Below are positions 13,547-15,294 of a DNA stretch of 64,000 bases, piece by piece. A program made the translations under genes and the position numbers. How positions within the stretch are numbered: position 1 is the stretch's first letter; the number at the start of each line of letters is the position of its first letter. This DNA comes from an uncultured Candidatus Poseidoniales archaeon (GTDB lineage: Archaea > Thermoplasmatota > Poseidoniia > Poseidoniales > Poseidoniaceae), in the NCBI GenBank assembly GCA_905182125.1, contig CAJJAV010000009.1:1-64000 (forward strand). Reading direction: 5' to 3'. The notes under the pieces are model-generated. The model saw only the letters and a program-made list of their open reading frames with translations. It ran no database searches and was not told the DNA's origin.

Positions 13547-14095
13547 ATGATGAAGCGGTACCTTCTGCCTCTTGCACTGGTCCTCACCATGGTGCTTTCC
13601 AACACCGCCGGGTGCATGGGTCTGATTCCAGCTCGAGAGAGCATTGAAGCCATGCGGGGCGAAGCAGAGGAATCAATCACCGTTGAATCCACCAGCTTTA
13701 GCCATGTCTTTGACTCGATTGATATCGAACCTTACACCAACTCATCGACCATTGCAGTCGATGAAGGCGCAACTCAAATCATCATTTACAGGAAAGTTAC
13801 CATCACGGGAACAGACAGTATTTCCTGTTTTGATGGCGGCATAACCCGCTATGTCCGGGCAACACTCATCGAACCGAACGGCGAAACTGCATGGGAATTG
13901 GATGAATGCGAAGATGTCCAGCCGATCACCATCACCCTCACACCTGATCCAACCCTCCCAATTGGCGAGTGGACCCTCTCGGTCGATGCTCGTGGTTTTG
14001 GCATACCAGGTACTGGTGCACAGGACTCCTTCACCGTTACAGTAAGCGTTCAAAGCACTTGCATCATCTATCCACCGAATGATGTTTGCTCGTGA
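13547..14095 (+). CDS. Putative lipoprotein of unknown function
   Basis: Protein of 182 residues with a signal sequence ending in a lipobox-like NTAGC (cysteine at residue 23), so it is probably lipid-anchored outside the cell. The mature part is predicted beta-rich, for example GATQIIIYRKVTITGTDS and EWTLSVDARGFGIPGTGAQD, with a few cysteines that could form disulfides. No family was recognised. It ends 2 bases before the convergent nuclease-like gene. The ATG-ATG start is at 13547; a weak TATA-like GATATG is about 25 bases upstream. Confidence 0.75.
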   Translation: MMKRYLLPLALVLTMVLSNTAGCMGLIPARESIEAMRGEAEESITVESTSFSHVFDSIDIEPYTNSSTIAVDEGATQIIIYRKVTITGTDSISCFDGGITRYVRATLIEPNGETAWELDECEDVQPITITLTPDPTLPIGEWTLSVDARGFGIPGTGAQDSFTVTVSVQSTCIIYPPNDVCS

Positions 14096-14097
14096 AC

Positions 14098-15294
14098 TCA
14101 CACCAATGCTTCGGTGCAAGCGTACCTTCTCGAACAGTTCCTACATTTTCCTGGGCGTTGATGGTTCCTCTTGGCTCCACCTTCGACCATCAACCGTTGA
14201 ATCTCGCCGATGGCAGAAAACAGATCTTGTTTGGCCTTGTCGTTCCATTCAATTTGATGCAGGTTTTCCTTTCCATAGCGGATCACGCCGTATGGTGAAC
14301 TTTTCTTGGTGTTAATTTCCACCAGATGAAGGTAGGCAAGCACCTGCATTCGATGGGAGGGATGTGGCAGTTTTGGCACTTTACCAGTCTTCTGTTCAAC
14401 CGGAATAAATTCACCATCAACAATCACGATTTGGTCAGGCCTTCCTCGCAGGCCTGTGATGCTGTCCACGAGCAGGTTTGTCGATGCGTCATCATCGGAG
14501 TAGGCAACTTCGTGGTCAGGCTCCAAATCCACATCCTTGCGGAGGTGTTCCAAGGCGTTATCTGACAACAGAACCTTCTGCAGTTGCCACGAAGCAGCGA
14601 GGGTCCAAGCCATGGCGGTCATGAAAAGAATAAACGTAGCCTGGGAACGGTCGTCCGCACCGACAAGAGCGATGGCGTGCAAGCCCAAGACAATGGCTCC
14701 GAAGAAGAGTAAAACCTCAGTCCGACCAGCCTCAAACCAACCACCGATGAAGTTTTGTTGTTCAAACACAGGTTGGATTTCCTTGTGCTGGCTGATGATT
14801 CGTGACCTGGTTTGGGACACGGTCTCATTCCATCCCAGCCACTTTCGCCATGGCAAATAGGTCGCAATCAATCCAGCGATCAGCAAAACCAAGGCCCACA
14901 ACACGAGGTATCGGGCGAAGTCAAGTGGGGTCCGTACCACATCGTCGATGTAGTTGAACGCAATACCATCGATGACAAAAGCAACCGTCACTGAAAACCA
15001 CCAGGTCCAGATGATTGTTGCTCGACGCACTGAGGATTTCATTTCTTTGAACGATTCCATTTGTTCATGAATTTCGGCGTGCTTTTTGGCCCCGGCTTCA
15101 ATCGCCTCGCCCTGGCCAGAATTCCCCTCTCGGGAGAGCGCCCATGACATTGGGCAGTATTCGTGGCGTTCGAGATCACTCGCACTCAAATTCAATGCGT
15201 CGTTGTTTTCGTCACGCCAAATGTCATCGTTATGCAAACTGGCTTTGTAGGTCCCGATTTTGGAGCCGGTGGAGTCATCCGATACTCCCGCCAT
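14098..15294 (-). CDS. Membrane-embedded Cas4/RecB-like PD-(D/E)XK nuclease
   Basis: A 398-residue protein that combines the marks of a Cas4-type Fe-S nuclease with four membrane helices. Nuclease parts: LSASDLERHEYCPMSWAL (C47), a His motif GAKKHAEIHE (H72/H76), GRPDQIV (D287), FIPVEQKTGK (E300, K302), RMQVLAYLHL (Q317, Y321) and the C-terminal trio GKCRNCSRRYAC (C384, C387, C393), giving the one-plus-three cysteine pattern. Helices near residues 93-115, 127-148, 192-212 and 219-240 sit between the His motif and the catalytic core. No cas genes are nearby. It is divergent from rps2. Confidence 0.8.
   Translation of the reverse strand: MAGVSDDSTGSKIGTYKASLHNDDIWRDENNDALNLSASDLERHEYCPMSWALSREGNSGQGEAIEAGAKKHAEIHEQMESFKEMKSSVRRATIIWTWWFSVTVAFVIDGIAFNYIDDVVRTPLDFARYLVLWALVLLIAGLIATYLPWRKWLGWNETVSQTRSRIISQHKEIQPVFEQQNFIGGWFEAGRTEVLLFFGAIVLGLHAIALVGADDRSQATFILFMTAMAWTLAASWQLQKVLLSDNALEHLRKDVDLEPDHEVAYSDDDASTNLLVDSITGLRGRPDQIVIVDGEFIPVEQKTGKVPKLPHPSHRMQVLAYLHLVEINTKKSSPYGVIRYGKENLHQIEWNDKAKQDLFSAIGEIQRLMVEGGAKRNHQRPGKCRNCSRRYACTEALV

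What the first reader, a model, noticed from the sequence alone, without database searches (positions are those of the whole stretch)
14098..15294. Cas4-like nuclease with four membrane helices in the middle
All Cas4/RecB hallmarks are visible, including the 1+3 cysteine cluster, but about 150 residues with four helices separate the His motif from the GRPD/E-x-K core. Membrane-bound Cas4-like nucleases are not a standard family. DNA uptake processing or defence at the membrane are possible; no CRISPR genes are near.
Basis: partly seen in the sequence, partly recalled or inferred. Interest (0 to 1): 0.7.

Follow-up and report, generated by a model that had tools for sequence, protein, structure and literature searches.

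The report
Membrane-anchored Cas4-type DNA nuclease
A DNA-cutting enzyme related to CRISPR Cas4 has membrane-spanning hairpins inserted into its middle; this is a conserved family across an archaeal phylum, exists naturally cut into two membrane proteins in some lineages and on bacterial plasmids, works without CRISPR here, and appears not to have been described.

Summary
Window 14098-15294(-) encodes 398 aa with every Cas4/Dna2-type motif (C47, H72, D287, E300-x-K302, Q317xxxY321, C384/C387/C393) and a four-helix hydrophobic insert between the His helix and the GRPD core. The AlphaFold model (pLDDT 81) superposes on Cas4 structures at Z 19.5 over 184 residues, more than the C-terminal core alone holds, so both motif blocks form one nuclease fold. 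The gene is in 51/51 Poseidoniaceae genomes searched (>=85% complete); homologues with the insert at the same place occur throughout Thermoplasmatota, with one to four TM hairpins that are internal repeats. In three families (f6, f14, f25) and on Bacillus and planctomycete plasmids the protein is naturally split in the loop between the helices: a ~90-aa protein carries Cys1, His and one TM; a ~170-aa protein carries one TM, the core and three Cys. Cas1 is absent from 79/79 Poseidoniales genomes. Best reading: a cytoplasm-facing, membrane-tethered Fe-S exonuclease acting on DNA ends at the membrane, most likely incoming DNA. Architecture well supported; biological role inferred. New variant of a known kind.

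The parts
14098..15294 (-). membrane-inserted Cas4-type PD-(D/E)XK nuclease gene, 398 aa
   Evidence: ORF; Pfam Cas_Cas4 2.9e-10, PDDEXK_1 4e-9; 51/51 Poseidoniaceae genomes
15154..15156 (-). Cys47 (first Fe-S cysteine, YCP motif)
   Evidence: C in 85/87 homologues, unknown residue X in the other two
15079..15081 (-). His72, predicted metal ligand of the N-terminal helix (GxxxH)
   Evidence: H in 85/87
14947..15012 (-). TM1 (residues 95-116), continuous in the model with the His helix (63-119)
14857..14922 (-). TM2 (residues 125-146)
14659..14724 (-). TM3 (residues 191-212)
14587..14649 (-). TM4 (residues 216-236), runs on as a helix to residue 255; W230 conserved in 82/87
14101..14523 (-). 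catalytic core, residues 258-398
14434..14445 (-). GRPD (Asp287)
   Evidence: D in 86/87
14389..14397 (-). E300-x-K302
   Evidence: E 82 + D 5 of 87; K 87/87
14332..14346 (-). Q317xxxY321 (QhxxY motif)
   Evidence: Q 85/87, Y 87/87
14116..14145 (-). C384-C387-C393 (three Fe-S cysteines)
   Evidence: 86/86 sequences with residues there

Best explanation
It is an integral-membrane member of the Cas4/Dna2/EXO5 branch of [4Fe-4S] PD-(D/E)XK nucleases. The nuclease lobe faces the cytoplasm and stands on a helical stalk that continues into one or more TM hairpins inserted between the His helix and the Asp/Glu-Lys core (shown by sequence and model). The two halves of the active site and of the 1+3 cysteine cluster are brought together by the hairpin, which is why the protein can be cut in the extracytoplasmic loop and still be kept as two single-TM proteins (split shown; assembly inferred). 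By family knowledge it should be an Fe-S, metal-dependent nuclease acting on DNA with free ends (inferred). Tethering would confine it to DNA ends at the membrane, where linear DNA enters the cell, sparing the closed circular chromosome: most likely it degrades or trims incoming DNA, a standing barrier or processing step independent of CRISPR (inferred; this role about 40% likely, the architecture above 90%).
For: Motif conservation across the phylum. AF2 model pLDDT 81.4, pTM 0.71; Z 19.5 and 19.2 to Cas4 structures 7mi4 and 8d3l over 184-187 residues spanning 30-398, though the core after the insert is only 141 residues, so the N-terminal block is superposed too. Loop charge pattern: K/R fraction 0.04-0.05 in outer loops against 0.14-0.23 in inner segments. 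Same insert position in all 63 single-chain homologues, 2 to 8 TM; a hairpin model built only from the last hairpin finds at least two hairpins in 49 of 64 proteins and all four in L126, against 2 double hits in 128 reversed or block-shuffled controls. Split pairs in 30 of 30 f6/f14/f25 loci examined and on Bacillus, Paludisphaera and Singulisphaera plasmids. Not CRISPR: Cas1 0/79. Bacterial pairs sit beside a type IV DinG-like helicase (PADLOC E 2e-117), a PADLOC phage-defence candidate PDC-S54 (E 1e-148) and type IIG-like methylases.
Against: Archaeal neighbourhoods are stable housekeeping loci (uS2, lipoprotein, GlmS and so on), not defence islands, and the gene follows taxonomy; this fits a core cell function at least as well as defence. 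It is missing from seven genera of the sister family f2 with small genomes, so it is dispensable. No activity, localisation or Fe-S cluster has been measured. The bacterial defence neighbours rest on three plasmids.
Confidence: 0.55

Rival explanations
1. A core DNA maintenance enzyme: membrane-tethered Dna2/EXO5-like nuclease that trims chromosomal DNA ends or replication and segregation intermediates where the chromosome touches the membrane.
For: Vertical inheritance and stable housekeeping context; a TPD (CDIN1-like) gene lies directly upstream on the same strand in 10 loci of four families, 7 of them with gaps under 60 nt.
Against: Dispensable in seven f2 genera that keep TPD: TPD is in 76/79 genomes whether or not the nuclease is present. 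Bacterial versions found are on plasmids.
Confidence: 0.3
2. Processing of DNA taken up by or exported through a membrane channel (natural transformation, conjugation) rather than its destruction.
For: Two planctomycete pairs lie near a MobF relaxase and the Bacillus plasmid carries Tad-pilus-like genes, primase and helicase.
Against: No uptake or secretion genes recur next to the archaeal copies.
Confidence: 0.2
3. Ordinary CRISPR Cas4 (as NCBI's TIGR00372 would name several of these proteins).
For: L124, L126, L128 and L142 pass the TIGR00372 cut-off; PADLOC Cas4 models hit.
Against: The window protein is below the cut-off (63.4 against 65); Cas1 in 0/79 genomes of the order with working controls; TM insert and split forms are foreign to Cas4.
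Confidence: 0.03
4. The hydrophobic insert is not membrane-embedded but a soluble hydrophobic helical bundle, or the gene is decayed.
For: TM4 of the window is only moderately hydrophobic.
Against: Segments reach 2-3 on the Kyte-Doolittle scale in homologues, obey the positive-inside rule, come in hairpin multiples, and end split proteins as single terminal TMs; motifs are invariant, so not decayed.
Confidence: 0.03

Closest known systems
CRISPR Cas4 (PF01930, TIGR00372; structures 7mi4, 8d3l, 4ic1, 4r5q)
   Same: Fold, H-D-ExK-QxxxY active site, 1+3 cysteines
   Different: TM hairpins inserted between His helix and Asp strand; no Cas1; single gene in a housekeeping locus; natural two-protein forms
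Solo-Cas4 (Hudaiberdiev et al. 2017, PMC5704561)
   Same: Cas4-family nuclease encoded away from cas genes
   Different: That survey's main text never uses 'transmembrane' or 'Thermoplasmat-'
Dna2, AdnA/AddB and EXO5 nuclease domains
   Same: Same Fe-S PD-(D/E)XK fold, Z about 10-15
   Different: No helicase in the chain; membrane insert; EXO5 and Dna2 are soluble (own knowledge)
ACE1, Argonaute-associated Cas4 family protein (9iab, 9iac)
   Same: Cas4-family fold, Z about 12
   Different: Membrane insert; no Argonaute among the recurrent neighbours I named

Membership tests
PD-(D/E)XK nuclease superfamily, Cas4/Dna2 Fe-S branch | H, D, E-x-K, QxxxY motifs in order | tested here: met
PD-(D/E)XK nuclease superfamily, Cas4/Dna2 Fe-S branch | 1+3 cysteines | tested here: met
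   C47, C384, C387, C393 conserved in practically all of 87
PD-(D/E)XK nuclease superfamily, Cas4/Dna2 Fe-S branch | fold | tested here: met
   Z 19.5 to 7mi4, rmsd 2.9, 184 aligned
PD-(D/E)XK nuclease superfamily, Cas4/Dna2 Fe-S branch | bound [4Fe-4S] cluster and nuclease activity | not testable with these tools
   needs purified protein
CRISPR-associated Cas4 | encoded with cas1/cas2 | tested here: not met
   Cas1 in 0 of 79 Poseidoniales genomes, controls positive in 9 of 14
CRISPR-associated Cas4 | score above the TIGR00372 equivalog cut-off | tested here: not met
   63.4 bits against 65 for the window protein; several relatives do pass
Integral membrane protein, N-in/C-in | TM helices with inside-positive charge bias | tested here: met
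   prediction only
Integral membrane protein, N-in/C-in | membrane localisation | not testable with these tools
   needs fractionation or a tag topology assay

The most novel reading that the evidence does not exclude
A cross-domain class of membrane-gate nucleases in which the active site and a [4Fe-4S] cluster are assembled by a TM hairpin, in some lineages between two separate single-TM proteins (one Cys from one chain, three from the other), giving a spatial self/non-self rule: any DNA end at the membrane is attacked.
Probability: 0.35. Interest if true: 0.85.

Novelty: new variant of a known kind. Interest (0 to 1): 0.72.

Why it matters
Cas4, Dna2 and EXO5 relatives are known as soluble nucleases. 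A phylum-wide branch with the membrane domain built into the middle of the catalytic fold, with repeat expansion from one to four hairpins and natural two-protein versions, ties DNA cutting to the membrane in archaea that, in this order, have no CRISPR adaptation genes. It makes a clean question testable (what DNA end is cut at the membrane?), warns that several are likely to be misnamed CRISPR Cas4 by automatic annotation, and the split pairs offer a natural test of Fe-S cluster assembly between two chains. In the bacterial plasmids the upstream half of each pair is annotated as a hypothetical protein, so its partner reads as an incomplete nuclease.

Tried and rejected
First AF2 run on order-level sequences only gave pLDDT 64 and an unresolved core; replaced by the phylum-wide alignment. 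Programmed frameshifting as the reason for split ORFs: rejected because relative frames are 0, 1 and 2 in different f25/f14 members and starts often overlap or abut stops. Functional coupling to TPD by co-occurrence: not supported, TPD is nearly everywhere in the order. Viral or phage origin: no match in viral contigs or phages at those sensitivities. Neighbour profiling across the phylum gave no shared partner. A search of the own genome with PF01930 missed even the window gene, so it says nothing about other copies; the protein search found one copy. Literature: no open-access paper holds 'membrane-bound Cas4', 'split Cas4' or similar; subscription papers are not covered.

Full report
What is there. 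The reverse-strand ORF 14098-15294 encodes 398 residues. Pfam recognises Cas_Cas4 and PDDEXK_1 in residues 261-394; NCBI's Cas4 equivalog just misses its cut-off (63.4 of 65 bits). The N-terminal block (SASDLERHEYCPMSW, then GAKKHAEIH) carries the first cysteine and the histidine; the C-terminal block carries YSD, GRPD, EQK, QVLAY and CRNC-x5-C. Between them lie about 175 residues with four hydrophobic segments.

Reality of the gene. The window is from the archaeal order Poseidoniales (record titles; genome G000, 1.85 Mb). A homologue is in 51 of 51 Poseidoniaceae (f1) genomes of at least 85% completeness and in four genera of the sister family f2, but in none of seven other f2 genera, whose genomes are smaller (the family names f1/f2 are labels of the tool, Poseidoniaceae is from record titles). 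The locus is syntenic: divergent ribosomal protein uS2 and a convergent small lipoprotein-like gene flank it in nearly all of about 119 loci, some of them redundant. All catalytic residues and cysteines are invariant or nearly so among 48 sequences down to about 50% identity, and so are residues of the membrane part (W96, W98, D109, P148, GGW184-186, E193, H206, WT230-231, LQ238-239).

The wider family. A profile search of 294 Thermoplasmatota genomes found relatives in 184. Outside the order nearly all match as two blocks, because the insert is too divergent to align. I fetched 76 stretches plus the search loci. In every single-chain relative examined the insert sits in the same place. It holds 2 TM (f3, f11, f12, f13, f18, f23, f30), usually 4, and about 8 in f10, f24 and f28. 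A model trained only on the last hairpin recognises earlier hairpins in most proteins, with controls far lower, so the membrane domain grows by hairpin duplication. In an 87-sequence alignment the active-site and cluster residues stay put while the insert drifts, except W230. Core-domain phylogeny follows taxonomic families (few columns, deep forks unresolved).

Natural splits. In f14, f25 and f6 the gene is two adjacent, usually overlapping ORFs. The first (about 90 aa) has Cys1, His and a C-terminal TM; the second (about 180 aa) has an N-terminal TM, the core and three Cys. Frames differ between members and start and stop codons overlap or abut, so these are two genes, probably translationally coupled. 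A protein search of plasmids then turned up the same split pair in Bacillus subtilis plasmids (81 + 162 aa, the first annotated hypothetical) and in planctomycete plasmids (91 + 169 and 88 + 169 aa, four-base overlap). Representative C-halves and N-halves aligned together with the window protein keep every motif.

Structure. With the phylum-wide alignment AlphaFold2 gives pLDDT 81, pTM 0.71. The His helix (63-119) runs straight into TM1, and TM4 runs out to residue 255, so the nuclease stands on a helical stalk. Best matches are the Cas4 parts of 7mi4 and 8d3l (Z 19.5 and 19.2, 184-187 residues), then AdnA, EXO5 and Dna2. Since only 141 residues follow the insert, the N-terminal block must be part of the superposition. 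The model file could not be opened, so distances between active-site atoms were not measured. Charge bias puts both nuclease blocks in the cytoplasm.

Role. Cas1 is absent from all 79 order genomes tested while controls ring, so it is not CRISPR adaptation. Archaeal neighbours are housekeeping genes; the only recurrent operon-like partner is a TPD gene (PF14811; human relative C15ORF41/CDIN1, own knowledge, cf. PMC7261414) in 10 loci of four families, but TPD is nearly universal in the order. Bacterial pairs sit beside a type IV DinG-like helicase, a PADLOC phage-defence candidate and restriction-methylase-like genes. Putting a DNA-end-dependent nuclease at the membrane suggests a barrier to, or processor of, incoming linear DNA; a chromosome-maintenance role is the main rival. 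Neither is shown.

Known or new. The main Cas4 phylogenomics paper does not mention transmembrane forms (PMC5704561), and full-text searches found no description. I class it as a new variant of a known kind: fold and chemistry are Cas4/Dna2; the membrane architecture and two-chain forms are not described as far as I could search.

Noticed in passing
L142, L143, L173, L176, L178, L181, L182 (f14 split genes): The downstream half has no ATG at the junction: an ATA codon (TTG or ATG in sisters L179, L174, L180) follows GAGGTGAT or similar, a Shine-Dalgarno-like sequence inside the end of the upstream gene, and overlaps its stop (ATAG). Suggests a conserved non-standard start with translational coupling.
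   Followed up: partly
L133:4977-6884(+): Eight-TM version with a TRAM (nucleic-acid-binding) domain fused at the C-terminus (Pfam E 1.3e-10).
   Followed up: no
G003:C6:85765-86948: A second, broken copy of the nuclease (frame breaks, in-frame TGA) in a genome with an intact copy on C7; decayed duplicate or contaminant.
   Followed up: no
L224:11339-14420 (B. subtilis plasmid NRS6116_2): A type IV CRISPR DinG/Csf4-like helicase lies two genes before the split membrane Cas4 pair on a plasmid stretch with no other cas gene annotated.
   Followed up: partly
L225:3973-6372 (Paludisphaera plasmid PALBO2): PADLOC phage-defence candidate PDC-S54 (E 1e-148) close to a split membrane Cas4 pair.
   Followed up: partly
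L121, L122, L123, L134, L136, L146, L147, L157, L185, L188: TPD/CDIN1-like gene directly upstream of the membrane nuclease, a possible nuclease operon.
   Followed up: partly
window 13547-14095(+): Convergent 182-aa lipoprotein-like gene (signal-like start then AGC) kept next to the nuclease in nearly all Poseidoniales loci; no Pfam match.
   Followed up: no
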